Below the pieces are notes generated by a model, which did not search any database, was not told the DNA's origin, and saw only the letters and a list, made by a program, of their open reading frames with translations. The translations under genes were made by a program, and so were the position numbers. A DNA stretch of 64,000 nt from Olsenella sp. An188 (GTDB lineage Bacteria > Actinomycetota > Coriobacteriia > Coriobacteriales > Atopobiaceae), in contig NZ_NFKF01000001.1 in NCBI RefSeq assembly GCF_002160255.1, forward strand, positions 434,001-498,000. Reading direction: 5' to 3'. Below are positions 1 through 64,000 of the stretch, piece by piece. Position 1 is the first letter of the stretch. Each line of letters begins with the position of its first letter.

Positions 1-10
1 CCCGTGGCCG

Positions 11-480
11 CTACGCCGTCGGCGTGAGCACGAACTCGCGGACCTCCTCCACCGCAGCCTCGAGGTCCTCGACCACGCCCTCGCTCGCCGCGTCGGAGAA
101 CTCCCGCGTGAACCCGTAGGCCTCGCCGCTCGATGTTGTGAAGCCCCACTCGGAGCGCTCCCCCAGTCCGTGGTCGCCAAAGACGCGCTGGAAGAAGCCG
201 CTCGTTGCCACCGCGTAGGCAACGCCCCCGGTGGAGAAGCCCCCGTAGTAGTGCAGAACAAGCGGCACGCGATAGCGCTCCGGGAGGCGCATCACCGCCG
301 TGAACACGCGGACGTGCCCCTCGCTCGGCATTTGCAGCTGGTTTGCGTAGGCCTCGATGTCCTCCACACGCCGCCACGGGCGCCTGAAGAGCGAGCGGCA
401 CTCGTTCACGGTCACACGCACGAGCCAGTTGCGCAGGTACGCGTCGGTCTCAAAGCTCTTCTCGCCTGCGTTCTTTGGGC
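11..480 (-). pseudogene. Decayed ECF sigma-factor remnant fused to unrelated sequence
   Basis: Reading leftward from about position 460, the translation shows the middle of an ECF (sigma-70 family) factor: DAYLRNWLVRVTVNECRSL, then RRPWRR, then the region-4 start LPERYRVPLVLHYYGGFS. Region 2 before it and the helix-turn-helix of region 4.2 after it are absent. At about position 240 the frame runs on without a stop into about 75 residues I cannot assign (FGDHGLGERSEWGFTTSSGEA, ending EFVLTPTA). The open frame continues upstream into hisF and has no plausible start of its own. I read it as a deletion remnant joining the core of a sigma factor to the tail of another gene. The recognisable part begins immediately after the word GGCGAGAAG. 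A functional short protein is possible but unlikely. Confidence 0.55.
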
Positions 481-553
481 CCTCACCTTGGATGCGCGGC
501 AGGAGCGGGATTGTTTCAGACTTTCTTGGCGGCCGCCGATTCTGGCAAGAAGC

Positions 554-600
554 GCGCTCTTCTCGCCGTGCCGTCAGCCCGAGCCAGGCGAGAAGAGCGC
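554..600. terminator. Dyad between sigma remnant and hisF
   Basis: Two perfect complementary 14-base arms, GCGCTCTTCTCGCC (554-567) and GGCGAGAAGAGCGC (587-600), are separated by 19 bases. The dyad ends 3 bases before the hisF stop position at 603, so on the minus strand it forms a stem directly after hisF. There is no clean T-tract, so it may act as a bidirectional or factor-assisted terminator. Both arms contain the over-represented word CTTCTCG/CGAGAAG. Confidence 0.6.
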
Positions 601-602
601 CG

Positions 603-1373
603 CTAGAAGTCAAGCCGCACGGGGATGCCCTGGCTGGCCATGTACTCCTTGACCTCGCGGATCGTGTAGGTGCCAAAGTGGAAGACGCTCGCGGCGAGAA
701 CCGCGTCGGCCTCGCCCTCGACGATGCCCTCGGCAAAGTGCTCGAGCGTGCCTACGCCGCCCGACGCGATCACGGGAATGGGCACGGCGCGCGACACCGC
801 GCGGGTGAGCGCCAGGTCGAAGCCGTCCTTGGTGCCGTCGCGGTCCATACTCGTGAGCAGGATCTCCCCCGCCCCGCGCCGGGCCGCCTCCTCAGCCCAC
901 GCAACCGCGTCGATGCCCGTGGCCTGCCGGCCCCCCGCCAGGTAGACCTCCCACTTGTCGCCCGCGCCGGGCACGCGCTTGGCGTCGATGGCGCAGATCA
1001 CGGCCTGGGAGCCAAAGGCCGTCGCCGCGGCCGTGATGAGCTCGGGGCTGCGCACCGCGGCGGAGTTCACGGACACCTTGTCCGAGCCCGCCGCGATCAT
1101 CTGCCGACAGCCCGCCACGTCGCGAAAGCCGCCGCCCACCGTGAAGGGGATGCGCAGCTCGGCCGCCGCGCGCGCGGCGAGGTCGATCGTGGTGGCGCGG
1201 TCGTCCGAGGTGGCCGTGATGTCGAGGAACACCACCTCGTCGGCGCCCTCCTTGTCGTAGCGGCGCGCGAGCTCCACCGGGTCGCCGGCGTCGCGCAGGT
1301 CCACGAAGTTGACGCCCTTCACCACGCGGCCGTCCTTCACGTCCAGGCAGGGTATGACGCGCTTGGTAAGCAT
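603..1373 (-). CDS. hisF: Imidazole glycerol phosphate synthase cyclase subunit HisF
   Basis: HisF is the cyclase half of IGP synthase. It condenses PRFAR with the ammonia released by HisH to give imidazole glycerol phosphate and AICAR, step 5 of histidine synthesis. The 256-residue protein has the normal family length and a (beta/alpha)8 barrel. The two catalytic aspartates are visible: D11 in CLDVKDG and D130 in AIDAK. Phosphate-binding loops appear as GGGFRD (about 80-85) and ASGGVG near the C-terminus. It is the last gene of the his operon, separated from hisA by 198 bases that contain an inverted repeat, so its expression may be uncoupled from the genes upstream. Its partner HisH is encoded two genes upstream. 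Confidence 0.97.
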
Positions 1374-1571
1374 GGCCTCTCCTCCAGCCCCGGCGAGCCG
1401 TCACCCCTCTTGCCGGGCTCGGCGCTCGCCTCGCTCGCTCACTTCGTGACTCGCCCCGCAAGAGGGGCGACGGCCCGCCCGCTCGCACGGGCCCATGCCG
1501 CCAAGCTTACCGCGAGCCGGGACCTCCTGCCCCTCTCGCCGCCAGGTCGTAACACGCGGAGCCGGCCACGC
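1374..1571. repeat. hisA-hisF gap with long inverted repeat
   Basis: This 198-base gap inside an otherwise tightly packed operon contains two 15-base arms, at 1399-1413 (CGTCACCCCTCTTGC) and 1458-1472 (GCAAGAGGGGCGACG), complementary except for one base and separated by 44 bases. The loop contains a smaller direct/inverted CTCGCTCACTTCGTGACTCG segment. It has no open frame of its own. A transcriptional pause, mRNA-stability element or internal terminator before hisF are all possible. Confidence 0.45.
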
Positions 1572-2306
1572 TCACGCGCAGGCCGCCAGGGCCTCCTCCA
1601 GCGAGAAGGACCCCTCGTAGAGGGCGCGTCCGCAGATGGCGCCCTCCACCGCGTCCGGCCCGAGCGCCGCGAGCGCCCGCAGGTCGTCCAGGCTCGCGAT
1701 GCCGCCCGAGGCCACCACGGGAAAGCCCGCAACCTCGGCCACGTGGGCGTAGGCGGCCGCGTCCACGCCGCAGCGCATGCCGTCGCGCGCCACGTCGGTG
1801 AAGACGAGGTGGCGATACCCCATCTCCGCGAGGCGCGCCACCAGCTCGTCAGCCGAGAGCGCCGCTCCCTCGCGCCAGCCGTTCACGCGCACCTCGCCGT
1901 CTCGCGCGGCCACGTCGGCCACGAGCAGCTCGCCGTAGCGCGCCGCGGCCTCCCGCGCAAAGTCGGGGTCGCGCACGAGCGCCGTCCCGATGGCGATCCG
2001 CCTCACGCCCAGCCCCGCCAGCCGCTCGACGGCCGCGAGGTCGCGCACGCCGCCCCCGGCGTCCACGGAGATCCCCTCCACCGCGCACACGGCGCGGATG
2101 GCGGCGTCGTTGGCCGCTCGGGCCGCCTCGTCCTCCTCGAGCGTGGCGGAGAGGTCCACCACGTGCACCCAGCTCGCCCCGGCGTCGCGGAACCCCTCGG
2201 CCACCGCGGCCGGGTCGTCCGAGTAGACGTCCATCGCGGAGCGCTCCCCGCGCGCGAGGCGCACCACGTGCCCTCCCACCAGGTCGATCGCCGGGAAGAG
2301 GATCAA
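1572..2306 (-). CDS. hisA: ProFAR isomerase HisA
   Basis: HisA isomerises ProFAR to PRFAR by an Amadori rearrangement, step 4 of histidine synthesis. I place the start at a TTG codon at 2306, two bases after the hisH stop, which gives MILFPAIDLVGGHVVRL and a 244-residue barrel of the usual length; the open frame extends upstream only as an antisense shadow of hisH. The catalytic aspartate D8 lies in FPAIDL, and the second acidic motif is FTDVARDGM. Phosphate-binding loops are DAGGGVRD and ASGGIAS. Close coupling to hisH and hisB on the same strand supports the call. The fold is close to HisF, but the N-terminal motif and RDGM loop fit HisA. Confidence 0.96.
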   Translation of the reverse strand: MILFPAIDLVGGHVVRLARGERSAMDVYSDDPAAVAEGFRDAGASWVHVVDLSATLEEDEAARAANDAAIRAVCAVEGISVDAGGGVRDLAAVERLAGLGVRRIAIGTALVRDPDFAREAAARYGELLVADVAARDGEVRVNGWREGAALSADELVARLAEMGYRHLVFTDVARDGMRCGVDAAAYAHVAEVAGFPVVASGGIASLDDLRALAALGPDAVEGAICGRALYEGSFSLEEALAACA

Positions 2307-2308
2307 CG

Positions 2309-2956
2309 CTACCGCCCTCCCCTCACGACGTCGACGAAGTTCGCCAGGATGGCCCCGCCGACCGCCGAGCTCTTCTCGGGGTGGAACTGGACCCCGTAGA
2401 CGTTCTCGCGCCAGACTGCGGAGGCGAAGCTGCGCGCGTAGTGGGTGCGCGCCGCGACCACGCACGGCTCCACGTCGTCCGCGAGCGCGTAGGAGTGCGT
2501 GAAGTAGACGTGCGCGCCCTGGGCCACGCCGCGGAAGAGCCGGCAGGTGCGGCCGAGCGGCGTGAGGTCGAGCTGGTCCCAGCCCACGTGCGGCACCTTG
2601 AGGCGGGTGGACTCCAGGCGCGTGGCCGAGCCCGACATCACGCCCAGGCCCTCGGCCCACGAGCCGTCGTCCGTCTCGTCGCCTCGCTCGAAGAGCAGCT
2701 GCAGGCCCAGGCAGATGCCCAGGAACGGCACGCCCCGGCCGACGGCGTCGAGGACCGCCTCGGCCTCGCCGCTCTCCCGCAGGAAGGCCATCGCGTCCCC
2801 AAAGCTCCCCACGCCGGGAAGCACCACGCCAGAGGCCTCGCGGATGGCGGACGCGTCGTCCGAGACGCGCGCCTCGCCGCCCGCCTCGACCAGGCCACGC
2901 TCGACCGAGCTGAGGTTGCCCTTGTGGTAGTCGACGACGACGATCGTGCGCGCCAT
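2309..2956 (-). CDS. hisH: IGP synthase glutamine amidotransferase subunit HisH
   Basis: HisH is a class I glutamine amidotransferase that hydrolyses glutamine and channels ammonia to HisF. The 215-residue protein carries the catalytic triad: the nucleophile C82 in GICLGLQLLF, and H192 and E194 in FHPEKS near the C-terminus. The N-terminal VVDYHKGNLSSVERGL and the oxyanion strand GVGSFGDAM are diagnostic. Its ATG overlaps the hisB stop by one base (TGATG), which indicates translational coupling, and hisA follows after two bases. HisF, its obligate partner, is in the same operon. Confidence 0.97.
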   Translation of the reverse strand: MARTIVVVDYHKGNLSSVERGLVEAGGEARVSDDASAIREASGVVLPGVGSFGDAMAFLRESGEAEAVLDAVGRGVPFLGICLGLQLLFERGDETDDGSWAEGLGVMSGSATRLESTRLKVPHVGWDQLDLTPLGRTCRLFRGVAQGAHVYFTHSYALADDVEPCVVAARTHYARSFASAVWRENVYGVQFHPEKSSAVGGAILANFVDVVRGGR

Positions 2957-3543: not shown

Positions 3544-3559
3544 GCTTCCTCCCTCGGGT

Positions 3560-3628
3560 GATACGAAGGGACGCTCCCCTCGTATCGTTGCGTCTATGAT
3601 GATACGGAGGGACGCTCCCCTCGTATCG
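3560..3628 (-). repeat. Duplicated 28-bp dyad spanning the hisC 3' end
   Basis: Two near-identical 28-base copies (3560-3587 and 3601-3628, one base different) lie 41 bases apart. Each is itself a dyad, GATACGA-GGG on the left and CCC-CTCGTATC on the right, so each can fold into a short hairpin. The right copy lies inside the last codons of hisC, and the left copy is in the hisC-hisB spacer. The arrangement looks like a local duplication that extended the end of hisC. It may act as an intercistronic stem-loop. Confidence 0.7.
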
Positions 3629-4697
3629 CGGCGAGCGCGTCGAGAAGGGCGTCGTTCTCCTCGCGCGTGCCCACGGTGACCCGCAGGCAGTCGTCGAGCC
3701 CCGGGGCGGAGCTGAAGTCGCGCACCAGGACCGAGTGCTCGTCGCGCAGGCGCCGGCGCACCTCCGCGGCGTGCGGCACGCGCACGAGCACGAAGTTGGC
3801 CGCGCTCGGCCAGACCCGCACGCCGCCCAGCCCCGCGAGCCCCGCCGCCAGGCGCGCCCGCTCGGCGACGACGTCGGCCACCACGGGCGCAAGCGCGTCC
3901 CGGCGTTCCACCGCGGCGAGCGCGACGGCCTGCGCGAGCACGTCAACGGAGTATATCTGACGCACGGCCGCGAGCGCGTCGACCACCGACGGGTTTGCCA
4001 AGAGGTAACCAACGCGCAACCCGGCGAGCGCGAACGCCTTGGAGAGCGTCCTGAGCACCATGAGGCGACCCTCGTGCTCCACCCACGGCGCCACGCTCGC
4101 CTCCTCGCCCGCAAACTCGACGTACGCCTCGTCCACGAGCACGAGGGCGTCCGTCTCGTCGAGGAGGCGCCGCACGAGCGCGCGGTCGACCAGGTCGCCG
4201 GTGGGGTTGTTGGGCGAGGTCAGGATCACGAGCGCCGCGCCCTCCGCGGCCGCCACGAGCGCGTCGGCGTCGATCGAGAAGTCGTCCGCGTCGCGCGGCA
4301 CGCCGCGCACCTCGGTCTCGGTCATCCTGGCGAAGTTGGCGTACTCGGCAAAGTCTGGCGGGCAGGTCACGAGGACGCGCCCCGGCCCGCCGAAGGCGAA
4401 GAGCAGGTTGAAGAGGAGCTCGTCGCCGCCGTTTCCCACCACCACGTGCGCGCGGTCGGTGCCGTGGCGGCGCGCGAGCGCGTCGCGCAGGTCGTTGGCC
4501 ATCGGGTCGGGGTAGCGGTTGAGCGGCGTGGCGAGAAGCGCCGCGGAGATTGCCTCGCGCGCCTCGTCCGGCAGCTCGTGGGTGTTCTCGTTGGCCGAGA
4601 GGTTCACGCGGCACGGGGAGAAGGCCGGGTCGTACGGCTCGAAGGAGCGCAGCGCCGGCCGCAGGCGGGCGGCGACGTCGAGGTTCTTCTCGCCCAT
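3594..4697 (-). CDS. hisC: Histidinol-phosphate aminotransferase HisC
   Basis: HisC is a fold-type I PLP aminotransferase that converts imidazole acetol phosphate to histidinol phosphate with glutamate as donor. The 367-residue length is usual. Motifs include SANENTHELP near the N-terminus, the PLP-pocket YPDPMANDLR, ILTSPNNPTG, the DEAYVEF aspartate-tyrosine pair and the Schiff-base lysine in LRTLSKAFALAGLR. The ATG at 4697 lies two bases after the hisD stop. The first residues, MGEKNL, are encoded by a copy of the over-represented GGCGAGAAG word and may be a recent extension. The last codons carry one copy of the duplicated 28-base dyad. Confidence 0.96.
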   Translation of the reverse strand: MGEKNLDVAARLRPALRSFEPYDPAFSPCRVNLSANENTHELPDEAREAISAALLATPLNRYPDPMANDLRDALARRHGTDRAHVVVGNGGDELLFNLLFAFGGPGRVLVTCPPDFAEYANFARMTETEVRGVPRDADDFSIDADALVAAAEGAALVILTSPNNPTGDLVDRALVRRLLDETDALVLVDEAYVEFAGEEASVAPWVEHEGRLMVLRTLSKAFALAGLRVGYLLANPSVVDALAAVRQIYSVDVLAQAVALAAVERRDALAPVVADVVAERARLAAGLAGLGGVRVWPSAANFVLVRVPHAAEVRRRLRDEHSVLVRDFSSAPGLDDCLRVTVGTREENDALLDALAAIRGERPSVSS

Positions 4698-4699
4698 GG

Positions 4700-10298: not shown

Positions 10299-10620
10299 CT
10301 GTCTGCCTCCTCGCGTCGCGGGCAAAGACCCTTTATCTTCTCACCGCCCCGCCCCGCACGGAGGGCGCCGCGCGGATTTCCCGCCGTTTCCCCACAGTGA
10401 CGCGCGACGAGCACCGCCCGGATTTCCCGCCGCGCCGCTCCCGTCGGGCCGCACAATTCCGGAATTGTGCGGCCGGGCGGGGCGTGCGGAGGGGGTTCTC
10501 CCAGTTGAGGTTCTTCTCGCGCTTAGAGAAGCCGGGTTGTCCCGGTCGCTTCTCGCACAATTCCGGAATTGTGCGGCCGCGGGAGCCGAGGGCCGAGAAG
10601 CGCCGCGAAGCCGGGAGCGC
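10299..10620. other. murJ-ybaK intergenic region with repeats
   Basis: There is no gene in these 322 bases. They contain a 14-base direct repeat, CGGATTTCCCGCCG (10373-10386 and 10419-10432), followed by a 129-base palindrome-bracketed element at 10447-10575. Small frames exist across the element, but their differences between the two copies do not look like protein-level constraint. Confidence 0.6.
10447..10575 (+). repeat. 129-bp palindrome-bracketed repeat, copy 1
   Basis: The element begins with a perfect 28-base palindrome (10447-10474, core GCACAATTCCGGAATTGTGC with GGCC ends) and ends with a second copy of the same core (perfect over 10554-10575). Between them lies a linker with TTCTTCTCGC and a bulged stem pairing GAGAAGCCGGG with CCCGG...GCTTCTC around 10525-10553. 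A second copy, same orientation and same length, is at 49641-49769 with six substitutions. This arrangement of palindrome, stem and palindrome recalls BIME/REP-type elements, but the sequence is not one I know. Confidence 0.85.
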
Positions 10621-11118
10621 CTAGCGCACCAGGTCGGCGTAGGCGGCGCCGCAGAAGCTCGCGAGGTCGTCCGGGGCGAGGACGAGCGAGAGGCCGCGCC
10701 GCCCGCCGGAGACGTGGATCTTGTCGAAGAGCTGGGCGGTCTCGTCGATCAGCGTGGGGAAGCGCCGCTTCATGCCCACCGGCGAGCATCCCCCGCGCAC
10801 GTAGCCCGTCGTCGGCTCGAGGTCGCGGACGTGCATCATCGCGAGGCTCTTCTCGCCCGCCGCTGCCGCCGCCTTCTTGAGGTCGAGCTCGTCGGCCACC
10901 GGGATGCAACACACCACGTGCTCCCCTCCCGGCGTCACGCACACGAGCGTCTTGAAGCTCGCGGCCGGGTCCTCCCCCAGCATCTGCGCGATGTGCAGGC
11001 CGAGCTCGCTCGAGGTGTCGGACTCGTCCACCTCGTACGTCTCGTACGAGAAGGGCACGCCCGCCGCCTCGAGCTCGCGCATGGCGTTGGTCTTCTGAAG
11101 CTTCTCGCGCCGCGCCAC
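10621..11118 (-). CDS. ybaK: YbaK/EbsC-type aminoacyl-tRNA deacylase
   Basis: The 165-residue protein belongs to the YbaK family, which hydrolyses Cys-tRNA(Pro) made by mis-charging ProRS. Family features are the N-terminal LEAAGVPFSYETYEVDE, the lysine-containing SFKTLVCV (equivalent to the KTL motif near K46 in the Haemophilus enzyme), the GGEHVVCCIPV strand and the substrate loop TTGYVRGGCSPVGMKRRFP. The start is a GTG at 11118, four bases after the uvrA stop, so it is probably co-transcribed with uvrA. The link to DNA repair is positional only. Confidence 0.93.
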   Translation of the reverse strand: MARREKLQKTNAMRELEAAGVPFSYETYEVDESDTSSELGLHIAQMLGEDPAASFKTLVCVTPGGEHVVCCIPVADELDLKKAAAAAGEKSLAMMHVRDLEPTTGYVRGGCSPVGMKRRFPTLIDETAQLFDKIHVSGGRRGLSLVLAPDDLASFCGAAYADLVR

Positions 11119-11122: not shown

Positions 11123-13996
<2,874 letters not shown>

Positions 13997-15408: not shown

Positions 15409-15859
15409 CGAGCACCTTCACGCAGACCTTCTTGAGCGGCGCCGGCTCGCCGGGGCAGCAGCCGGGCTTGTGCGCGTCGCACGGCGGCGTGACCACGAGG
15501 TCGCCGGGGCGCAGCGTGGCCCAGGCCTCGCGGTCGCCCGGCACGTACAGGCCGAAGTCGTCAGCCTCGGAGAACTCGCCCACCGGCTCGCACTCCCCCA
15601 CCGGCGCCACGCCCATCAGCTCCTCGCCGGAGATGACGTAGTGGACGTCGGCGTAGCGGCGGTGCGCCTCGTAGTTCTTCTCGCCAGGGCGGACCGTGGT
15701 GAGCTCCTGGACGTTGGCAAAGACCTCGTCGCCCATGATCTCGTGGCGGCCGGGGGCGAGCTCGGCCAGGTCGGGACGCGTGAGGAACTCGAGCGCCTTG
15801 GCCATGCGCGCGGAGGTGACGTCGTTGCGGGCGGCGTCTGCGAGGGACGTGAAGATCAT
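15401..15859 (-). CDS. YhcH/YjgK/YiaL family (DUF386) protein
   Basis: This 152-residue single-domain protein of the DUF386 family has a cupin-like fold, related to EbgC and linked to sugar (for example sialic acid) metabolism. Visible features are GRHEIMGDEVFANVQEL, the metal-site segment AHRRYADVHYVISGEE and VTPPCDAHKPGC near the C-terminus, matching the histidine and acidic ligands of the family. It is the first gene of a two-gene operon with the MBL-fold hydrolase and is divergent from the Mrp ATPase. The ATG at 15859 is preceded by GGAGG. No sugar catabolic genes are adjacent, so the substrate stays open. Confidence 0.88.
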   Translation of the reverse strand: MIFTSLADAARNDVTSARMAKALEFLTRPDLAELAPGRHEIMGDEVFANVQELTTVRPGEKNYEAHRRYADVHYVISGEELMGVAPVGECEPVGEFSEADDFGLYVPGDREAWATLRPGDLVVTPPCDAHKPGCCPGEPAPLKKVCVKVLVD

Positions 15860-16877: not shown

Positions 16878-18074
16878 GTGGCACGTACGGCGAGAAGAAC
16901 CTCGAGGTCGCGAGCGCGCGAGGAGGCGCTCGCGGCGGCGCGGGCGGTCCGCGTGCCGCGGGCGGCAGACGTCGTGGTGGTGGGTGGCGGCGCCTCCGGG
17001 CTCGCCGCGGCCGTCGCCGCCGCGGAGGCCGGCGCGCACGTGGTGGCGCTCGAGCGCGACGTGGCGTTCGGGCGGCGTCTGCTCGCCACGGGCAACGGGC
17101 GCTGCAACCTTGCCAACGCGCGGCTCGCGTGGGGGCGCTACAACGACGCGGCCTTCGTGGAGGCGGTCTGCGGGACGCCCGAGGGGTTTCTCGCCGACGT
17201 GCTGGCGTTCTTCGAGGGATGCGGGCTCGCGGTGGCCGAGGAGGGCGGCGGGCGCATCTACCCGCTTTCGCGGCAGGCGTCCAGCGTGCGCGAGGTCCTT
17301 CTCGCCCGGGCGCGGCGGGCCGGCGTGGTGATGGCTGCCGCCCGCGAGGTGACGGGGATCGCGCAGGGCGAGGTTTCCTTTGACGAGGACGGGCGGCGGA
17401 TCTCCGTTTCCGCCGGCGCCGTGGTGGTCGCGGCGGGCGGCGGCGAGGGGCTGGTGCGCGGGCTCGGGCTCGCGTGCGCGCCGTACGAGCCGGTGCTCTG
17501 CTCGCTCGCGTGCCGCCCCGCCACGCCCGAGGTCGACCTCCGCGCGCTCGACGGGAGGCGCGCGCACGTGGTCGCGCGGCTCCTGCGCGAGGGGGCCGAG
17601 GTCGCGCGCGAGGAGGGCGAGGCGCTCTTCAGGACCTACGGGGTCTCGGGGATCGTCGCCTTCGACCTCTCGCGGCACGCCCGCCCCGGCGACGTCGTCT
17701 CCCTCGACCTCACCTGCGGAATGGACGAGCGGCGCGCGGGCGAGCTCGTGCGCGCCGCCGGCGGCGCCTGCGGCCTGCTCGACCCCGTCGTCGCCGCCGC
17801 CCTCGGCCCTGGCGCGGCGAGAAGGGCCCGCGACCTGCGCCTCGTCGTGTCCGGCCCGGCCGAGCCCGAGCGCGCGCAGGTCACCCGGGGAGGCCTGGTG
17901 ACGGCGCAGTTCTCGCCCAAGACGCTCGAGGCCAGGGCGGTTCCCGGCCTCTTCGCCTGCGGCGAGGCGCTCGACGTGGACGGCGCCTGCGGCGGCTTCA
18001 ACCTCGCCTGGGCATGGAAGAGCGGCCTGGTGGCAGGCGCGTCCGCCGCGGCGCGAGCCGTCGCCGGGAGGTAG
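16878..18074 (+). CDS. NAD(P)/FAD-dependent oxidoreductase, HI0933/BaiN type
   Basis: The protein (398 residues) belongs to the COG2081 flavoprotein family. The FAD dinucleotide fold is VVVVGGGASGLAAAV at about residues 32-46, followed by GRRLLATGNGRCNLAN, a family hallmark, and a C-terminal FACGEALDVDGACGGFNL that closes the FAD site. Members include the bile-acid enzyme BaiN, but most have no known substrate, so I do not assign one. The GTG start is one base after the mrp-like stop. The arginine-rich first 25 residues come partly from a GGCGAGAAGAACCT word and look like an extension. Confidence 0.88.
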   Translation: MARTARRTSRSRAREEALAAARAVRVPRAADVVVVGGGASGLAAAVAAAEAGAHVVALERDVAFGRRLLATGNGRCNLANARLAWGRYNDAAFVEAVCGTPEGFLADVLAFFEGCGLAVAEEGGGRIYPLSRQASSVREVLLARARRAGVVMAAAREVTGIAQGEVSFDEDGRRISVSAGAVVVAAGGGEGLVRGLGLACAPYEPVLCSLACRPATPEVDLRALDGRRAHVVARLLREGAEVAREEGEALFRTYGVSGIVAFDLSRHARPGDVVSLDLTCGMDERRAGELVRAAGGACGLLDPVVAAALGPGAARRARDLRLVVSGPAEPERAQVTRGGLVTAQFSPKTLEARAVPGLFACGEALDVDGACGGFNLAWAWKSGLVAGASAAARAVAGR

Positions 18075-18433: not shown

Positions 18434-20122
18434 ATGATCGAGGTCTCAGGCATCCGCGTTGGGCTTCAGGAGCTCGACGGGTCCGACGCCGCCGAGCTCT
18501 CCGCGTGCCGCCGCGCGCTGGCACGCCGCCTGCGCATCGGCGAGAAGGACCTCGCGTCTGTCACGCGCCGGCGCCGCTCGATCGACGCCCGCAAGCGCGG
18601 CGAGGTGCATCTCACCTTCACGCTGCGTGCCGAGCTCGCGGGCGGCCAGGACGCCGAGCGGGCGCTCCTGCGTCGCCTCTCCAGGCACCGCGCCGAGAAG
18701 AACGTGCGGGTCGTGGACGAGGAGCCGTACGGCTTCCCCGAGGTCGTCCCGAGCGCGCCGGCCCTGCGGCCCGTGGTGGTGGGCGCCGGCTGCGCGGGGC
18801 TCTTCTGCGCGCTCTCGCTCGCGCGCGCTGGGCTCGAGCCGCTGCTCGTGGAGCGCGGCGACGACGCCACGCGCCGTGGCGAGGTCGTGCGGCGCCACGA
18901 CGAGACGGGCGAGCTCGACCCCGAGAGCAACATCCAGTTCGGCGTGGGCGGCGCGGGCACCTTCTCAGACGGCAAGCTCCAGACCGGCACGCGCAGCCCG
19001 GCGCACCGGCTCATCTTGGAGGAGTTCGTCGCGGCGGGCGCGCAGCGGGAGATCCTCTGGGACGCCAAGCCTCACGTGGGAAGCGACGTGCTGCCCCGCG
19101 TTGTCGACGAGCTCGTGCGCCAGATCGAGGCGGCGGGCGGCGAGGTGCGCTGCCGCTGCAGGATGGTCGACCTCGACGTCACGGGAGGGCGCGTGCGCTC
19201 GGTGACGCTCGCGCAGGCCGGGGAGGACGGCTCGGTGCGCGAGGAGCGCGTCTCCGCGAGCTGCGTGGTCATGGCCTGCGGGCACTCGGCGCGCGACGTC
19301 TTCGAGCTGCTGCGCGAGCGCGGCGTGGCGATGGAGCGCAAGACCTTCGCCATGGGCGTGCGCATCGAGCACCTGCAGGCAAGCGTCGACCGCGCGCTCT
19401 GGGGCAGCGCCGCGGGCCACCCCGCGCTCGGCGCCGCGCCCTACAAGCTCTCCTGCCACCTGCCGTCCGGCCGCAGCGCCTTCTCGTTCTGCATGTGCCC
19501 CGGCGGCTACGTGGTCTCCGCCGCGAGCGAGCCGGGCGGCGTCTGCACCAACGGCATGAGCCTCTCGGACCGCGCGGGGACAAACGCCAACTCGGGGCTG
19601 CTCGCCAACGTCTTCCCGGACGACCTTCCCGGCGACGACGTGCTCGCCGGCGTGGAGCTGCAGCGGGCCTGCGAGCGCGCCGCCTTCGCCGCGGGCGGCG
19701 GCGCCTTCGTCGCCCCCGCGCAGCTCGCGGGCGACTTCCTGGCGGGCGCTCCGTCGAGCGCGGGCGGCGAGGTCGTCCCCACCTACCCGCGCGGCGTCGC
19801 CTGGGGCAAGGTGGGCCCCTGCCTACCCGACTACGTGAGCGAGACCCTGCGCGCGGCGATCCCCCAGATGGGCCGGCGCCTGCGCGGCTTTGACGCGGCC
19901 GACGCCGTGCTCACGGGCGTGGAGACGCGTTCGAGCTCACCGGTGCGCGTGACGCGGGGCGCCGACGGCCAGAGCGTGAGCGTGAGCGGCCTGTGGCCCG
20001 TAGGCGAGGGCGCCGGCTACGCGGGCGGCATCATGAGCGCGGCGACCGACGGCATCCTTGCGGCCGAGAAGATCGTGGCGACGTACGCCTCGCACGGGAC
20101 GGGCGGCCGCGAGCTGAGGTGA
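18434..20122 (+). CDS. FAD-dependent dehydrogenase, COG2509 type
   Basis: The protein (562 residues) has an N-terminal alpha/beta domain of about 100 residues (ALARRLRIGEKDLASVTRRR), then a FAD fold PVVVGAGCAGLFCALSLARAG, the segment ESNIQFGVGGAGTFSDGKL and a C-terminal PVGEGAGYAGGIMSAATDG that closes the cofactor site. This matches the uncharacterised COG2509 dehydrogenases found in many anaerobes. The ATG at 18434 follows GAAAGGA; the very long upstream frame is a shadow of the previous gene. A GNAT gene follows after five bases. Substrate unknown. Confidence 0.88.
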   Translation: MIEVSGIRVGLQELDGSDAAELSACRRALARRLRIGEKDLASVTRRRRSIDARKRGEVHLTFTLRAELAGGQDAERALLRRLSRHRAEKNVRVVDEEPYGFPEVVPSAPALRPVVVGAGCAGLFCALSLARAGLEPLLVERGDDATRRGEVVRRHDETGELDPESNIQFGVGGAGTFSDGKLQTGTRSPAHRLILEEFVAAGAQREILWDAKPHVGSDVLPRVVDELVRQIEAAGGEVRCRCRMVDLDVTGGRVRSVTLAQAGEDGSVREERVSASCVVMACGHSARDVFELLRERGVAMERKTFAMGVRIEHLQASVDRALWGSAAGHPALGAAPYKLSCHLPSGRSAFSFCMCPGGYVVSAASEPGGVCTNGMSLSDRAGTNANSGLLANVFPDDLPGDDVLAGVELQRACERAAFAAGGGAFVAPAQLAGDFLAGAPSSAGGEVVPTYPRGVAWGKVGPCLPDYVSETLRAAIPQMGRRLRGFDAADAVLTGVETRSSSPVRVTRGADGQSVSVSGLWPVGEGAGYAGGIMSAATDGILAAEKIVATYASHGTGGRELR

Positions 20123-24439: not shown

Positions 24440-24488
24440 CATAGCCAACAGGAACCGATGGGCGAGAAGAGCCTCGAGAGGGGGCCCT

Positions 24489-28768: not shown

Positions 28769-29559
28769 GGCCGGGCCTCCCAGCGCTTCACGGCCGCGTC
28801 GAGCGCGCGGCCCACGAGGGCCTCAAGGCACACGGAGACCGCCACGACCGCAACCGTCCAGGCGAAGAGGTCGGCGGTGTTGAGGTAGACCTTGGCGTCG
28901 TAGAGGTGCTCGCCGACCGTGAGGTCGGGCAGCCCGATGACCTCGGCCGCGACGCCCGCCTTCCAGGACATGCCGAGCGCCAGCGAGAAGCCCGCGCGCA
29001 GGTAGGGAAGCACCTGGGAGAGGTAGACGAGGCGCACGCGCTCGAGCGGGCGCACGCCAAAGACCTCGGCCATCTCGAGCAGGGCCGGGTCGGTCTGCCG
29101 GATGCCCTCGAGCGCGTTGGTGTAGACGATGGGGAGCGCCATGACGAGCGCGATGACGGTCGAGAGGCCGCGCGAGGGCACCCACAGCAGCACGAGGATC
29201 ACGAACGAGGCCACGGGCACCGCCTTCGCCGCGCTCATGACCGGGGCGACGAGCTCGCGCACGACCCGCACGCGGCTCGAGAGCGCCGCGAGCGCGACGC
29301 CCGCCACGACCCCGGCGGCGAGCCCAGCCAGAACGCGGGCGAGCGAGATGCCCAGGGAGGCCCAGAACTCGCCCGTGAGGGACAGGGAGACGAGGTGCCC
29401 CGCCACCTCGAGCGGCCCCACGAGGACGATGCTCGCGTCGATGGCGCGGGCGGCGAGCTCCCAGACCACGAGCCAGAACGCCACGCAGAGCAGCCGGACG
29501 GCCCACGTGGGGAGCCGCCCGGCCGGCCCGAGGTCCTTCTCGCCGCGCGAGCGTGCCAT
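28765..29559 (-). CDS. NitT/TauT-type ABC transporter permease
   Basis: This 264-residue permease of the SsuC/TauC type has six or so hydrophobic segments. The coupling-helix (EAA) motif appears as MAEVFGVRPLERVRLVYLSQVLPYLRAGF around residues 165-195, which contacts the ATPase. The start is the ATG at 29559 (MARSRGEKDLGPAGRL); the N-terminal GEKDL is encoded by a copy of the GGCGAGAAG word. The gene lies between the lipoprotein gene (12 bases away) and the overlapping ATPase gene. Confidence 0.9.
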   Translation of the reverse strand: MARSRGEKDLGPAGRLPTWAVRLLCVAFWLVVWELAARAIDASIVLVGPLEVAGHLVSLSLTGEFWASLGISLARVLAGLAAGVVAGVALAALSSRVRVVRELVAPVMSAAKAVPVASFVILVLLWVPSRGLSTVIALVMALPIVYTNALEGIRQTDPALLEMAEVFGVRPLERVRLVYLSQVLPYLRAGFSLALGMSWKAGVAAEVIGLPDLTVGEHLYDAKVYLNTADLFAWTVAVVAVSVCLEALVGRALDAAVKRWEARP

Positions 29560-30612: not shown

Positions 30613-30694
30613 GTTGGACCTCCCTTGCTCAGTGTTCAGACCAAACAACGATAGCACGGGGAGGTCCTTCTCGCCCAAGCGTCCGGTAGGCGGT

Positions 30695-37795: not shown

Positions 37796-37813
37796 GTCCT
37801 TCTCGCCTCGCCC

Positions 37814-41989: not shown

Positions 41990-42030
41990 GGCGAGAAGGA
42001 CGAGCAGACCCGCCGCTCGTCCTTCTCGCC
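41990..42030. terminator. Bidirectional terminator-like dyad after HAD and GH3 genes
   Basis: Perfect 16-base arms GGCGAGAAGGACGAGC (41990-42005) and GCTCGTCCTTCTCGCC (42015-42030) enclose a 9-base loop. It sits between two convergent genes. Both arms begin with the over-represented word. Confidence 0.75.
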
Positions 42031-49409: not shown

Positions 49410-49592
49410 GTGCGCCCTTTCTGTTGGTGGCGTGCGGGATTGGAATTCCGCCGATTACTCTAACGGCACATTATTTCACGACCGTTGCCGCCGCGTGAAG
49501 CTCACGGGGCGACAGCGTTGCGGGCGCGCGGCGACTTCGTGGCGAGAAGGGCAACGGGCCGGGTGCGGGAGGGTGCGGGCGCGACGTGGGGG

Positions 49593-49648
49593 GACCCGTG
49601 GCCGCACCCCCAAGACCCGTGGCCGCACCCCATGACCCGTGGCCGCAC
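49593..49648 (+). repeat. Three tandem GACCCGTGGCCGCAC repeats
   Basis: Units start at 49593, 49614 and 49634 (spacing 21 and 20 bases). The third runs directly into the first palindrome of the 129-base element, so the last GGCCGCAC is shared by both. Confidence 0.75.
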
Positions 49649-49769
49649 AATTCCGGAATTGTGCGGCCGGGCGGGACGTGCGGAGGGAGTTTTCCCAGTT
49701 GAGGTTCTTCTCGCGCTTAGTGAAGCCGGGTCGTCCCGGGCGCTTCTCGCACAATTCCGGAATTGTGCG
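49641..49769 (+). repeat. 129-bp palindrome-bracketed repeat, copy 2
   Basis: This has the same orientation and exact length as the copy at 10447-10575, with six single-base differences. The palindromes are at 49641-49668 (28 bases, perfect) and 49748-49769 (22 bases, perfect). The substitutions fall in the linker, while both palindromes are unchanged. The right palindrome runs straight into GGCGAGAAGGGC. Confidence 0.85.
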
Positions 49770-49879
49770 GCGAGAAGGGCGGCGCAGGCGGCGAGAAGGA
49801 CGTGCGCCCGCGCCTCCCCCGCGGCGAGGCGGGTTCTTCTCGCCTACAATCGAGTGACTACAACGACGAGAGGACACCC

Positions 49880-53091: not shown

Positions 53092-53467
53092 CCGCGAGCG
53101 CGCGGTTCTTCTCGGCCGCACGTCCTTCTCGGCGGAAGGTGCTCGTCCTTCTCGACGGCAGGCGCTCGTCCTCCTCGGCGTCGCGTTCTTCTCGGCCCCT
53201 CTTCTCCCGCCAATCTGCCGGTTGTGTGCAACAACTTTGATATGTCGCCCGCCCTAAGAGCCCGTTTCATCAAAGTTGTTGCACACAACCGCCCGCTTCA
53301 CGCAAATCTGGCGAGAAAAGCGGCGACGCCCTTGCCGTCACATAAAACGTGTTGCACACAACTGGCGCTTTCCAATGGGTTTGATGCCCGCGCGGCGCAC
53401 AGCTCCCGCAAATACTCACAACTCCGGTTTTGTCGCAGGGACGACGCGCACGGAGAAGGCCGCGGCT
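53092..53467. other. rnhA-PNPOx intergenic region
   Basis: These 376 bases between convergent genes hold no gene. The left third has four CTTCTCG words in about 90 bases (53104-53200). The rest has repeats of the 22-base GGTTGTGTGCAACAACTTTG family: a perfect inverted pair (53220-53241 and 53269-53290) and a degenerate single copy (53341-53362). A different element (53411-53433) follows. Confidence 0.65.
53220..53290. repeat. Inverted pair of the 22-bp TTGTGTGCAACA repeat
   Basis: The left arm (53220-53241) starts GGTTGTGTGCAACAACTTTG and the right arm (53269-53290) is its perfect complement, with 27 bases between. Further copies lie at 53341-53362, 54258-54280, 54296-54318 and 54370-54391. 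The pair could end transcripts from rnhA, but six copies in 1.2 kb suggest a repeat family rather than a simple terminator. Confidence 0.8.
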
Positions 53468-59049: not shown

Positions 59050-59157
59050 GCAGGAGTACCTCGCCGAGCTGCGCGCGGCCCCGGCGTCGCCCGCGGCCCC
59101 GGCGAGAAGAGCCTCTACGCCATGGTCTCGGTCATTGCCGCGGGGCTCGGCATCTGA
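59042..59157 (+). pseudogene. Remnant of HAAS/DUF1700-type partner of PadR
   Basis: An ATG at 59042 overlaps the padR stop by eight bases and begins MTKQEYLAELR, the usual start of the HAAS-domain protein that follows PadR. After about 16 residues the match ends. In another frame, right after a GGCGAGAAG word at about 59101, a hydrophobic tail GEKSLYAMVSVIAAGLGI ends at a TGA (59157). The centre of the gene appears to be deleted, leaving both ends. This is inference from short segments. Confidence 0.55.
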
Positions 59158-59218: not shown

Positions 59219-60151
59219 ATGCCCGCAGTTATCACGCACCACATCTTCGGAGAGGACATCGCGGCCTCCCTCCCCGCGGGGATGGTCGAGGGCGAGGAGG
59301 AGCTTCTCGCCTTCCTGCTCGGCAACCAGGGCCCCGACCCGCTGTTCGCGCGCTTCTCGACGCTGCCGTCGCGCGCCCGGACCTGCCACCGGCTCGCCGG
59401 CCTCATCCAGGGCGGGTCGGTCACGCGGGCGCTGCTCGCGCTGCGCGACGGCGTGAGCCACCTGCCCCGCCCCGACGAGCGCATCGGCCGCGCCTTCGCG
59501 CTCGGCATGCTCGGGCACTACGCGCTCGACCGCGCGGCGCACCCCTTCGTGATCGCGCAGGAGCGCGCGCTCGGACGCGTCGACCCCGACCTCGCCGCGG
59601 CGTCCCGCGAGGTCCACGCCCTCATCGAGTCGGACGTCGATACCTGGATCTTGTGGGAGAAGCGCCGCGCCACCGTAGAGGAGCGGCCCGCGCCGGGCAA
59701 CCTCATGCGCACGGCGCGCATCGACCGCGTGGGCGGCGCGCTCTTCTCGCAGGTGGCGCTCTCGGTCTTCTCCACGCCCCTCGGCGCGGGCGAGTACGCG
59801 GGCTGCACGCGCGACTACGAGGCGGCCCTGCGGCTGGTGGAGCCCGCCGGCTCGACGCGCACGCGCCTCATCGGCGCCGCAGAGCGCCTCGTCCGCGGGC
59901 GCTCGCTCGCGGAGGCGACCTCCCACTACGTGCGCCGCACCGACGACTGCCCCGCGGCGAACCTCGACCGGCGCTCCTGGGAGCACCCCTTCACCGGCGA
60001 GGTCCGCCACGACAGCTTCGCCGACCTCTTCGACGAAGCGCGGCTCGCCTACCCCGCGCTCGCCGAGGCGTTCGTGCGTGGCGAGAAGGACCTCCTGCGC
60101 GAGCTCGTCTCCGGCCTCAACTACGAGGGTCGCCCCGGAACCGACGACTAG
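59219..60151 (+). CDS. Zinc-dependent phospholipase C-like protein
   Basis: The 310-residue protein fits the zinc-dependent phospholipase C/S1-P1 nuclease-like fold (PF00882-type). Histidine and aspartate ligands are seen in MPAVITHHIFGED at the N-terminus, LGNQGPDPLF, and MLGHYALDRAAHPFV, the last matching the H-x3-D-x3-H metal motif of the family; WEHPF comes late. There is no signal peptide, so a cytoplasmic or membrane-surface role is likely. The ATG at 59219 follows AGAGGAGAGG. The C-terminal VRGEKDLLREL is encoded by a CGAGAAG word. Activity is not proven by sequence. Confidence 0.75.
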   Translation: MPAVITHHIFGEDIAASLPAGMVEGEEELLAFLLGNQGPDPLFARFSTLPSRARTCHRLAGLIQGGSVTRALLALRDGVSHLPRPDERIGRAFALGMLGHYALDRAAHPFVIAQERALGRVDPDLAAASREVHALIESDVDTWILWEKRRATVEERPAPGNLMRTARIDRVGGALFSQVALSVFSTPLGAGEYAGCTRDYEAALRLVEPAGSTRTRLIGAAERLVRGRSLAEATSHYVRRTDDCPAANLDRRSWEHPFTGEVRHDSFADLFDEARLAYPALAEAFVRGEKDLLRELVSGLNYEGRPGTDD

Positions 60152-60173
60152 GCCCGGGCGCGCAGCGCGCAGG

Positions 60174-60359
60174 TCAAAGCCAGACGAGCTCGGGCGGCGC
60201 GTCGTCGTCGGGCTTGCGGGCCTCGTCCGCGGGCCTCTCGGCCGAGCCCCAGGAGGAGGACTCCTCCAGCCACGGACGGTGCTCCGGGGAGGGCTCGAAC
60301 GCGCGCTCCTCGCCGTTGACGAGCCAGACCAGGCCGATGCCACCGTCGTCGTCGCCCAT
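60174..60359 (-). CDS. Small acidic protein downstream of gltD
   Basis: This 61-residue frame starts at an ATG (60359) two bases after the gltD stop and reads MGDDDGGIGLVWLVNGEERAF at its start, ending DDDAPPELVWL. It is strongly acidic with tryptophans near both ends (VWL at about 11-13 and at the C-terminus). I do not recognise it. The tight spacing and same strand suggest translation with gltD, but the coding potential of such a short GC-rich frame is uncertain. Confidence 0.45.
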   Translation of the reverse strand: MGDDDGGIGLVWLVNGEERAFEPSPEHRPWLEESSSWGSAERPADEARKPDDDAPPELVWL

Positions 60360-60361
60360 GG

Positions 60362-61834
60362 CTAGACCCCCAGCTCCCCGGCCACCTCTGCCGCGCACGC
60401 CATGGCGTCTGCGATGGCGCTCACGACGAGCGACGAGCCGGTTCGGGCGTCCCCGGCCACGAAGACCGGCGTCTCGCCCGACGTAGCGGCACGGTGCGAG
60501 CCGGGCGCGGCCACCTCCGGCAGCCCCCGCTCCCCGCGCGCCACGCCGAGCGCGTCGAGCACGCCGCGCTCCGGGCCGGTGAAGCCGCACGCCACGAGCA
60601 CGAGCTGGGCGGGCATCTCCCGCTCGGAGCCCTCCACGGCCTCGGGGCGTCCGCCGGACCAGTCGAGGTCGACCACGCGCAGTCCGCGCACCGCTCCCCT
60701 CTCGTCGAGAAGGACCTCGCGCGTGTCCACCGCCCACTCGCGGCACTCCCCGCCCATGAGCTCGATGGCCTCCGCCTGTCCGTAGTCGGTCTTGAGGGTG
60801 GCGGGCCACTCGGGCCAGCGCACGGTGCCCGGGCCCGGCTCCGCCGGGCGCGGCATGAACTCGAGCTGCCGCACCGAGCGCGCGCCCTGGCGCACCGCGG
60901 TGCCCATGCAGTCGTTGCCCGTGTCGCCGCCGCCGATCACCACGACGTCGAGGCCCGCCGCGCTCGGGAGCGGCTCGCCGCCGTCGAGAAGCGCGCGCGT
61001 GGACGCCGTGAGGTAGTCCACCGCGTACGCCACGCCGCCCGCGGCGAGCCCCTCCTCGAAGCCCGCCGCCGCGAGGCCGCGCGGCGTGCGCGCACCCGCG
61101 GCCACCACCACGGCGTCGGAGGCGGCAAGGAGCGCCTCGGCCACGCCGGCGTCAGCCGCGTCGGTGCCCAGGCGAAACTCCACGCCGAGCTCCTCCATGA
61201 GCGCCACGCGCCGCTCGACCACGTCCTTCTCGAGCTTCATGCTGGGGATGCCGTACATGAGCAGGCCCCCGGCGCGGTCGGCGCGCTCCACCACGCTGAC
61301 GCGGCAGCCGCGGCGCGCGAGCTCCCACGCGGCCGCGAGGCCCGCCGGGCCCGAGCCCACCACGGCCACGCGCGGGGCGTCAGGCGCCGCCGGCTCGAAG
61401 CGCCTCGGGCCGCCGTGGGCCCACTCCCAGTCCGAGATGGCGCGCTCGTTGTCGTGGATGGTCTCAGGCTCGTCGTCGCGCCCGAGGTTGCAGGCGGCCT
61501 CGCACAGCGCCGGGCACACGCGGCTCGTGAACTCCGGCAGCGGCGAGGTGAGCGCCAGGCGGTCGGCCGCCTCGCGCCAGAGCCCCCGGTAGAGCAGGTC
61601 GTTCCACTCGGGGATGAGGTTGTGCAGCGGGCAGCCGCTCGGCCGCGCGCCGCCAAAGCCGAGGCCCGCCTGGCAGAACGCCACGCCGCACATCATGCAG
61701 CGGCTCGCCTGCTCGCGCTGGGCCTCTGGCGGGAGCTGGCGGTAGAGCTCGCGGTAGTCGCGCGTGCGCTCGCCCACCGCACGCAGCTCGTGGACCACGC
61801 GGCCCACCGTGAGAAACGCTCCGGGCTTGCCCAT
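60362..61834 (-). CDS. gltD: Glutamate synthase small subunit
   Basis: GltD supplies electrons from NAD(P)H to the large subunit of GOGAT. The 490-residue protein has an N-terminal domain with cysteines for iron-sulfur clusters (CMMCGVAFCQ, CPLHN, CPALCEAACNLG), then the FAD fold VAVVGSGPAGLAAAWELARRG and the NADPH fold VVVIGGGDTGNDCMG, and a C-terminal VFVAGDARTGSSLVVSAIADA. The start is the ATG at 61834, three bases after the gltB stop. With glnN this completes ammonia assimilation. A homologous NADPH-dependent reductase subunit is unlikely because gltB is adjacent. Confidence 0.95.
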   Translation of the reverse strand: MGKPGAFLTVGRVVHELRAVGERTRDYRELYRQLPPEAQREQASRCMMCGVAFCQAGLGFGGARPSGCPLHNLIPEWNDLLYRGLWREAADRLALTSPLPEFTSRVCPALCEAACNLGRDDEPETIHDNERAISDWEWAHGGPRRFEPAAPDAPRVAVVGSGPAGLAAAWELARRGCRVSVVERADRAGGLLMYGIPSMKLEKDVVERRVALMEELGVEFRLGTDAADAGVAEALLAASDAVVVAAGARTPRGLAAAGFEEGLAAGGVAYAVDYLTASTRALLDGGEPLPSAAGLDVVVIGGGDTGNDCMGTAVRQGARSVRQLEFMPRPAEPGPGTVRWPEWPATLKTDYGQAEAIELMGGECREWAVDTREVLLDERGAVRGLRVVDLDWSGGRPEAVEGSEREMPAQLVLVACGFTGPERGVLDALGVARGERGLPEVAAPGSHRAATSGETPVFVAGDARTGSSLVVSAIADAMACAAEVAGELGV

Positions 61835-61837
61835 GCT

Positions 61838-64000
61838 TTATGCCTCCCTCATCGCGTCGAACGCGTAGCTCAGGGCCTCCTCGCGCGTCGCCCCGCGCCC
61901 CTCTGCCTCGGCCACGTGCGCCAGGACCCGGGCGTAGTCGCGCGGGATGACCTTCACGAAGTCGCCCCGGATGGACTCGAACTGGTAGAGCATCTTGATG
62001 CCGCGCGGGCTGGCCGTGCGCCGCACGTGCTCCTCGATGAGCGCGCGGATTTCCGCGAGCTCCTCGGCGCTCGGTGCCTCGAGGTCCACGAGCTCGGCGT
62101 TGCAGCGCCGCGCGAGCGTGCCGAACTGGTCGTACACGTAGGCGACGCCCCCCGACATGCCCGCAGCGAAGTTTGGTCCCACCTCGCCGAGCACGAGCAC
62201 GCGCCCTCCGGTCATGTACTCGCAGCCGTGGGCGCCCACGCCCTCCACGACCACCGTGGCCCCGGAGTTGCGCACGCAGAAGCGCTGGCCGGCGAGGCCG
62301 TTGACGAACCCGCGCCCCCCCGTGGCGCCGTAGAAGGCCACGTTGCCCACGATGACGTTCTCGTCGAACTTGTACGTTGCCCCCTCGCGCGGGCGCACCG
62401 AGACCACGCCCCCCGAGAGCCCCTTGCCAAAGTAGTCGTTGGCGTCGCCGGAGATGCTGAGCGTCACGCCCGCCGGCAGGAACGCGCCGAAGCTCTGGCC
62501 GCCGGAGCCCTCGCAGTCCACCGTGATCGAGCCCTCGGGCAGCCCCTCGGGGTGCGCCTTGGTCACGCGGCTTCCCAGCAGCGTCCCCACGCAGCGGTTG
62601 ACGTTGTCGATGTCGGCGTGGAAGCGGACGGGCGTGAGGTGCTCGCGGGCGGCCTCGGTGTAGGGCACGAAGAGCGTGGCGTCGAGGGTCTTCTCCAGCT
62701 CAAGGTCGGGGCCCATCTCGGGGAGGAAGTGCCGCCCGTCGGCCCCGGGGATGGCCCGCCCGAACTCGCAGGTCGCGGGGGCGAGAAGGTCCGTGAGGTC
62801 GAGCAGGTTGGCCTTCCAGTTGGCCTCCCCCTCCACGCGGACCTGCGTGAGGCAGTCGGAGCGGCCCACCATCTCGTCCACCGTGCGAAATCCCAGCGAC
62901 GCCATGATCTCGCGCAGCTCCTCGGCGACGAAGGTCATGTAGTTGACCACGTGCTCGGGCCTGCCGGAGAAGCGCCCGCGCAGCGCGCAGTTCTGCGTGG
63001 CGATGCCGGCGGGGCAGGTGTCGCGCTGGCAGTCGCGCTGCATGAGGCAGCCGCAGGCGACGAGCGGCATCGTCGCAAAGCCGAACTCCTCGGCGCCGAG
63101 AAGCGCGGCGATTGCCACGTCGCGGCCGCTCATGAGCTTGCCGTCGGTCTCGAGCACCACGCGGGAGCGCAGGCCGTTGCGCACGAGCGTCTGCTGCGTC
63201 TCGGCGAGGCCGATCTCGAACGGGATGCCTGCGTGGTAGATGGAGTCGCGCGGGGCGGCGCCGGTGCCGCCGTTGTGCCCGGAGACGAGGATCTTGTCGG
63301 CCCCTCCCTTTGCCACGCCCGTGGCGATGGTGCCCACGCCCGCCAGCGCGCACAGCTTCACCGAGACGCGCGCGTCGGGGTTGGCGTTCTTGAGGTCGAA
63401 GATGAGCTCCGCCAGGTCCTCGATCGAGTAGATGTCGTGGTGCGGCGGTGGCGAGATGAGCCCGACGCCGGGCGTGGACTGGCGCACCTCCGCGATCCAC
63501 GGGTAGACCTTGCGCCCGGGCAGGTGGCCGCCCTCGCCGGGCTTGGCGCCCTGGGCCATCTTGATCTGGATCTCGACGGCGCTCGTGAGGTAGCGGCTCG
63601 TCACGCCGAAGCGCCCCGAGGCCACCTGCTTGATGGCCGAGCGTCGCGAGTCGCCGTTCGGCAGCGCGGTCTCGCGCGCCGGGTCCTCGCCGCCCTCGCC
63701 GGTGTTGGAGCGCCCGTGCAGGCGGTTCATGGCGATGGCCAGGCACTCGTGCTGCTCGCGGCTGATCGAGCCGTAGCTCATCGCGCCGGTGTTGAAGCGA
63801 CGCACGATCTGGCTCGCCGGCTCCACCTCCTCGAGCGGCACGGGCGCGCCGGCCGGCGAGAAGCCCATGAGGTCGCGCAGCGTCACGGCGCGCCCGCCGC
63901 GGTGCACCCACGCGGAGAACTCCCTGAAGAGGTCGTAGTCGCCCTCGCGGCAGGCGCGCTGCAGCAGGTAGATGGCCTTGGGGTCGATGAGGTGCTCCTC
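61838..64000 (-). CDS. gltB: Glutamate synthase large subunit, 3' part
   Basis: The visible 720 residues are the C-terminal part of GltB; the frame runs off the right edge with no start in the window. They include the FMN-binding synthase domain (FNTGAMSYGSISREQHECLA, GAKPGEGGHLPGRKV, KILVSGHNGGTGAAP), the 3Fe-4S cysteines CGCLMQRDCQRDTCPAG, and the GXGXG beta-helix domain (GSGGQSFGAFLPAGV to RALIEEHVRR). GOGAT transfers the amide nitrogen of glutamine to 2-oxoglutarate. gltD follows after three bases. The N-terminal amidotransferase domain must lie beyond 64000. Confidence 0.95.
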   Translation of the reverse strand, partial: EEHLIDPKAIYLLQRACREGDYDLFREFSAWVHRGGRAVTLRDLMGFSPAGAPVPLEEVEPASQIVRRFNTGAMSYGSISREQHECLAIAMNRLHGRSNTGEGGEDPARETALPNGDSRRSAIKQVASGRFGVTSRYLTSAVEIQIKMAQGAKPGEGGHLPGRKVYPWIAEVRQSTPGVGLISPPPHHDIYSIEDLAELIFDLKNANPDARVSVKLCALAGVGTIATGVAKGGADKILVSGHNGGTGAAPRDSIYHAGIPFEIGLAETQQTLVRNGLRSRVVLETDGKLMSGRDVAIAALLGAEEFGFATMPLVACGCLMQRDCQRDTCPAGIATQNCALRGRFSGRPEHVVNYMTFVAEELREIMASLGFRTVDEMVGRSDCLTQVRVEGEANWKANLLDLTDLLAPATCEFGRAIPGADGRHFLPEMGPDLELEKTLDATLFVPYTEAAREHLTPVRFHADIDNVNRCVGTLLGSRVTKAHPEGLPEGSITVDCEGSGGQSFGAFLPAGVTLSISGDANDYFGKGLSGGVVSVRPREGATYKFDENVIVGNVAFYGATGGRGFVNGLAGQRFCVRNSGATVVVEGVGAHGCEYMTGGRVLVLGEVGPNFAAGMSGGVAYVYDQFGTLARRCNAELVDLEAPSAEELAEIRALIEEHVRRTASPRGIKMLYQFESIRGDFVKVIPRDYARVLAHVAEAEGRGATREEALSYAFDAMREA

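What the first reader, a model, noticed from the sequence alone, without database searches (positions are those of the whole stretch)
1..64000. A short word, CGAGAAG/CTTCTCG, saturates the window on both strands
Reading row by row I find roughly 125-130 copies, split about evenly between the two orientations, against roughly 6-7 expected from base composition alone at 70% GC. GAG-AAG (Glu-Lys) codons explain some, but copies are dense in non-coding DNA too (four within 90 bases after rnhA). Inside genes Leu-Leu pairs are often spelled CTT-CTC before a G although CTT otherwise looks rare (hisZG, hisC, hisD, pepT, oppD, oppF, gltB). The most common longer form is GGCGAGAAG followed by RRC. Such dispersed words are known as DNA uptake sequences (Neisseria, Pasteurellaceae), Chi or FtsK-orienting sites; the lack of strand bias argues against the last two. 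An uptake-like word has not, to my knowledge, been described in this class.
Basis: partly seen in the sequence, partly recalled or inferred. Interest (0 to 1): 0.8.

Follow-up and report, generated by a model that had tools for sequence, protein, structure and literature searches.

The report
Uptake-sequence-like genome word in Thermophilibacter relatives
The genomes of these gut-associated Gram-positive bacteria are peppered, about once per 900 bases and equally on both strands, with a 12-letter DNA word that looks like the "self" tags some other bacteria use to pick their own DNA for uptake, which have so far been known only from two Gram-negative families.

Summary
CGAGAAG occurs 124 times in the window (59 +, 65 -) against 15 in dinucleotide shuffles. 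The signal is a non-palindromic 12-mer, GnCGAGAARnnC, commonest here as GGCGAGAAGRRC. The whole 2.14-Mb genome holds 2355 GnCGAGAAGnnC against 101 of the reversed word. Codon-preserving shuffles do not explain it: 184 versus 20 antisense in genes. Spacer DNA has 119 versus 2. Changing almost any core base abolishes the excess. It shows no strand bias in any 50-kb bin, whereas the same scan recovers KOPS and Chi polarity in E. coli. So it is not an FtsK/SpoIIIE-orienting site and is an unlikely Chi. All 12 sampled genomes of the genus carry it. Other Atopobiaceae genera share the core but differ in flanks, like Neisseria uptake "dialects". Most Collinsella and rumen Atopobiaceae lack it. comEA, comEC, dprA and a Tad/Flp pilus are present; Flp pili and ComEA/ComEC serve transformation in Micrococcus. 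But comEC and Tad are near-universal in the order, so gene content does not discriminate. Best explanation: an uptake-signal-like self word accumulated by biased DNA uptake (about 0.55). Rivals: a Chi-like site for an AddAB-type enzyme, or another DNA-protein word. Uptake specificity itself is untested.

The parts
1..64000 (.). Region carrying the dispersed word: 124 CGAGAAG; 90 matches to GnCGAGAARnnC (50 +, 40 -)
587..598 (+). GGCGAGAAGRRC
16889..16900 (+). GGCGAGAAGRRC
17816..17827 (+). GGCGAGAAGRRC
18539..18550 (+). GGCGAGAAGRRC
24461..24472 (+). GGCGAGAAGRRC
41990..42001 (+). GGCGAGAAGRRC, left arm of an inverted pair between convergent genes
49541..49552 (+). GGCGAGAAGRRC
49769..49780 (+). 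GGCGAGAAGRRC
49790..49801 (+). GGCGAGAAGRRC
59101..59112 (+). GGCGAGAAGRRC
60080..60091 (+). GGCGAGAAGRRC
455..466 (-). GGCGAGAAGRRC
556..567 (-). GGCGAGAAGRRC, inverted pair with 587-598
4683..4694 (-). GGCGAGAAGRRC
10846..10857 (-). GGCGAGAAGRRC
12689..12700 (-). GGCGAGAAGRRC
15674..15685 (-). GGCGAGAAGRRC
17295..17306 (-). GGCGAGAAGRRC
29533..29544 (-). GGCGAGAAGRRC
30664..30675 (-). GGCGAGAAGRRC
37796..37807 (-). GGCGAGAAGRRC
42019..42030 (-). GGCGAGAAGRRC, right arm of the inverted pair with 41990-42001
49833..49844 (-). GGCGAGAAGRRC
53108..53194 (-). Four CGAGAAG copies in 87 bp of spacer after rnhA

Best explanation
GnCGAGAARnnC is a self-recognition word that works like the DNA uptake sequences of Neisseriaceae and Pasteurellaceae. 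A surface DNA receptor of the transformation machine (inferred: a Tad/Flp minor pilin, ComEA or an unknown protein) would bind DNA carrying the word better than other DNA. ComEC would bring in one strand, and DprA/RecA would recombine it into the chromosome. Repeated uptake of word-bearing kin DNA would fix new copies and repair decayed ones wherever protein coding permits, giving about one site per 900 bases on both strands. Shown here: the word, its stringency, its strand balance, its excess in permissive DNA, genus-level dialects and the presence of the genes. Inferred: the receptor, the uptake bias and natural competence itself.
For: Density of 1100 per Mb matches the roughly 1000 USS10 per Mb of H. 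influenzae-type genomes (PMC7811141) and about 1900 DUS per 2.2 Mb in meningococcus (PMC3630211). Orientation is balanced in every 50-kb bin. Excess is largest where coding constraint is weakest: spacer 119:2, antisense 184:20, sense 144:83 observed:expected. Copies are densest between convergent genes, 7.0/kb against 3.0 tandem and 2.5 divergent. Core stringency: almost every substitution loses the excess, except the last core G to A. The rare CTT codon is retained in relatives 39% of the time inside the word and about 10% outside (22 and 32 codons; p=0.03 against all 35 other CTT codons, three of them in Leu-Leu pairs). The word is in all 12 genomes of the genus. Other genera keep the core with significantly different flanks: GVCGAGAAGAGC in g10, GGCGAGAAGCGC in g18 and g66, p down to 6e-8. 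comEA and comEC, dprA, a Tad/Flp locus and a prepilin peptidase are present. Flp pili plus ComEA/ComEC serve transformation in Micrococcus luteus (PMC4322843).
Against: No uptake or competence data exist here. ComEC is in 192 of 201 and the Tad ATPase in 193 of 201 order genomes with or without the word. The separate PilC/PilT-type pilus is in only 4 of 12 word-bearing genomes of the genus. Inverted pairs, common at DUS terminators, are not clearly enriched: 21 inverted against 11 direct in spacers, p=0.11; 30 against 40 overall. The low-GC sugar-gene island has few copies, but not fewer than its composition predicts (O/E 4.2 against 4.4).
Confidence: 0.55

Rival explanations
1. A Chi-like recombination signal: the AddAB-type helicase-nuclease recognises the word, stops degrading and loads RecA, so the word is kept dense in the chromosome.
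For: An adjacent AddA-like/AddB-like gene pair is present. Chi words are also non-palindromic, over-represented and lineage-specific.
Against: No strand bias at all, while E. coli Chi is polar in the same test. Excess is far larger than E. coli Chi: O/E 14.5 in antisense plus spacer against 2.1. At about 9 constrained positions it is longer than the Chi words known to me (5-8 bp, from general knowledge). AddA-like scores are below the curated cut-off, so Chi recognition by this enzyme is unknown.
Confidence: 0.2
2. Binding or modification site of another genome-wide DNA system: nucleoid or chromosome-organising protein, methyltransferase or defence self-mark.
For: Fixed core, tolerance at two or three positions and lineage restriction fit any DNA-protein recognition. 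No methylome is available.
Against: About one site per 900 bases with genus dialects and random spacing (CV about 1) is unusual for such proteins. Restriction sites are usually avoided, not enriched (general knowledge).
Confidence: 0.2
3. FtsK/SpoIIIE-orienting sequence; the core resembles B. subtilis SRS GAGAAGGG.
For: Sequence resemblance only (SRS from general knowledge).
Against: Such sites must be polar. Here counts are 392 to 388 over the 464 kb sampled and balanced in each bin, while KOPS in E. coli split 11:0 and 0:8 by replichore.
Confidence: 0.02
4. By-product of codon, codon-pair or mutational bias.
For: GAG-AAG and TTC-TCG are favoured codons; some unrelated words reach genic O/E of about 3.
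Against: Spacer excess of about 60-fold, use of rare CTT, and loss of signal in single-base neighbours.
Confidence: 0.03

Closest known systems
DNA uptake sequence (DUS) of Neisseriaceae
   Same: Non-palindromic 10-12-mer, about 1 per kb, both strands, enriched in permissive DNA, dialects with shared core (PMC3630211)
   Different: High-GC Gram-positive host, unrelated sequence, no clear excess of inverted pairs, no known receptor, no uptake test; the N_methyl pilin model finds nothing
Uptake signal sequence (USS) of Pasteurellaceae
   Same: About 1000 per Mb with fixed core and looser flanks (PMC7811141)
   Different: No AT-rich flanking tracts seen in the spacer logo; host phylum; no uptake data
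Chi sites (RecBCD/AddAB)
   Same: Non-palindromic, over-represented, AddAB-like genes present
   Different: No strand bias, much stronger excess, longer motif
HIP1 of cyanobacteria
   Same: Highly iterated genome-wide word of unproven role (PMC4390886)
   Different: HIP1 is palindromic; this word is not

Membership tests
DNA uptake sequence (DUS/USS) | Preferential uptake or transformation of DNA that carries the word | not testable with these tools
   Needs a competent strain
DNA uptake sequence (DUS/USS) | About 1 copy per kb genome-wide on both strands | tested here: met
   1204 + 1151 in 2.136 Mb; balanced bins
DNA uptake sequence (DUS/USS) | Strong excess over codon-preserving and Markov expectation, highest in permissive DNA | tested here: met
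DNA uptake sequence (DUS/USS) | Inverted pairs at transcription terminators | tested here: inconclusive
   Spacer pairs 21 inverted, 11 direct, p=0.11; convergent spacers densest
DNA uptake sequence (DUS/USS) | Related lineages share a core with dialect differences | tested here: met
   Flank differences p down to 6e-8
DNA uptake sequence (DUS/USS) | Host has DNA-uptake machinery | tested here: met
   comEA/comEC, dprA, Tad, prepilin peptidase; near-universal in the order, so weak support
DNA uptake sequence (DUS/USS) | Sequence-specific receptor such as ComP | not tested
   No candidate assigned; the N_methyl pilin search found none
Chi site | Recognised by RecBCD/AddAB | not testable with these tools
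   AddAB-like genes present
Chi site | Orientation bias along replichores (as in E. coli) | tested here: not met
   E. coli control
KOPS/SRS | Polar orientation from origin to terminus | tested here: not met
   KOPS control
HIP1 | Palindromic octamer | tested here: not met
   Consensus GGCGAGAAGRRC is not palindromic

The most novel reading that the evidence does not exclude
A first sequence-specific DNA-uptake (self-recognition) system in Gram-positive bacteria, built on Tad/Flp pili plus ComEA/ComEC in Atopobiaceae, with its own word and genus dialects that evolved independently of Neisseria and Haemophilus.
Probability: 0.45. Interest if true: 0.9.

Novelty: new variant of a known kind. Interest (0 to 1): 0.74.

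Why it matters
A 2020 study states that only Pasteurellaceae and Neisseriaceae species show strong sequence preference in uptake (PMC7811141), and my searches found no uptake word reported for Actinobacteria or Coriobacteriia. A third, Gram-positive, independently evolved case would let one test how uptake words arise and what reads them. It would also give a practical tag for transforming these hard-to-manipulate gut bacteria. If it is Chi-like instead, it would be an unusually strong and unpolarised one.

Tried and rejected
Strand polarity: the first genome listing looked polar, but the list is truncated and lists forward hits preferentially; full counts and bins are balanced. Codon or mutational artefact: rejected by codon shuffles and spacer counts. 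A repair bias acting on one neighbour word: not supported, as several neighbours are depleted or neutral. Depletion in acquired DNA: raw counts are low in the 265-295 kb island, but O/E equals the rest. Link to the PilC/PilT pilus: absent from 8 of 12 word-bearing genomes of the genus. comEC and Tad as discriminating genes: near-universal. Gene calls are from my own simple codon-model caller, not a published one.

Full report
Source. The window is C1:434001-498000 of a 2.14-Mb, 99.9% complete, 16-contig draft genome. HisD relatives with names place it in the Thermophilibacter/Olsenella part of Atopobiaceae, class Coriobacteriia.

Observation. CGAGAAG occurs 124 times (59 + and 65 -) against 14.9 +/- 4.1 in shuffles. 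In the 464 kb read here, antisense frame 0 (CTT CTC G) has 169 against 24 and spacer DNA 167 against 41 under a third-order model. Base preferences give GGCGAGAAGRRC as consensus, with C at +9 in 80-90% and G at -2 in 67-83% of spacer and antisense frame-0 copies. For GnCGAGAAGnnC the observed:expected counts are sense 144:83, antisense 184:20, spacer 119:2. Single-base neighbours lose the excess except GnCGAGAAAnnC, 68 against about 8.6 in all; the outer G is only partly required. Synonymous neighbours such as CTCCTCG on the antisense side are depleted (26 against 95), as expected if they were converted into the word. Genome-wide there are 2355 GnCGAGAAGnnC against 101 of the reversed pattern, and 831 GGCGAGAAGRRC against 13.

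Distribution. Spacing is close to random (CV about 1) and the two orientations are nearly equal in each 50-kb bin. Copies are densest between convergent genes. Inverted pairs show a weak, non-significant excess in spacers. As controls, E. coli KOPS and Chi were run through the same code: both show replichore polarity, and Chi has O/E about 2.1-2.2.

Relatives. Every sampled genome of the genus has 971-2355 copies; other genera of the family range from about 40 to 1660. On a HisD tree the label needs four changes against 24 for shuffled labels. K-mer ranking puts CGAGAAG or its extensions first in the own genome, G171, G029 and G189, and an extension of the word among the top words in several others. 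Flanking preferences differ between genera: own GGCGAGAAG(GA/AA)C; g10 GCCGAGAAGAGC; g18 and f10-g66 GGCGAGAAGCGC. CTT codons inside the word are better retained among relatives than CTT codons elsewhere. The per-codon test is small, and the pooled one counts related genomes repeatedly.

Machinery. comEA and comEC lie at C1:190991-193988 and dprA near C1:87295. A Tad/Flp cluster with CpaF, TadB, TadC and a 62-aa Flp-like pilin is on C10, and a prepilin peptidase on C9. A second cluster on C13 has PilT, a PilC/GspF-type protein and small one-helix proteins, but most of the genus lacks it. An AddAB-like pair is on C15. Flp pili with ComEA/ComEC serve transformation in Micrococcus luteus (PMC4322843), so the own genome has a plausible machine. 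The machine is near-universal in the order, so its presence does not explain which lineages have the word.

Interpretation. The pattern matches uptake sequences in density, symmetry, length, stringency, preference for permissive DNA and dialect structure. It fails the polarity of KOPS and of E. coli Chi and the palindromy of HIP1. The uptake function, the receptor and competence are inferred, not shown.

Noticed in passing
window 10440-10577 and 49636-49771; C1:25313-25440, 109179-109303, 228117-228246: Dispersed intergenic element of about 138 bp with the 20-bp palindrome GCACAATTCCGGAATTGTGC near its ends about 104 bp apart; possibly a miniature mobile element or operator. No Rfam match.
   Followed up: partly
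L142:8631-12514 (G000 C13): PilT plus PilC/GspF-like cluster with four small one-helix proteins and no PilB found in the genome; patchy in the genus.
   Followed up: partly
G000 C1:203999, 257275 and 258613: Word pairs facing each other 24 bp apart around similar inner sequence (for example GTCATCTACCTGC), suggesting a small repeated inverted element that contains the word.
   Followed up: no
G000 C1, genes in the sample: Other genic words in excess over the codon shuffle, for example CTACCTGC 63 against 17; unexplained.
   Followed up: no
G000 C1:265000-295000: Low-GC (0.48-0.58) island of glycosyltransferase and surface-polysaccharide genes, probably acquired.
   Followed up: partly
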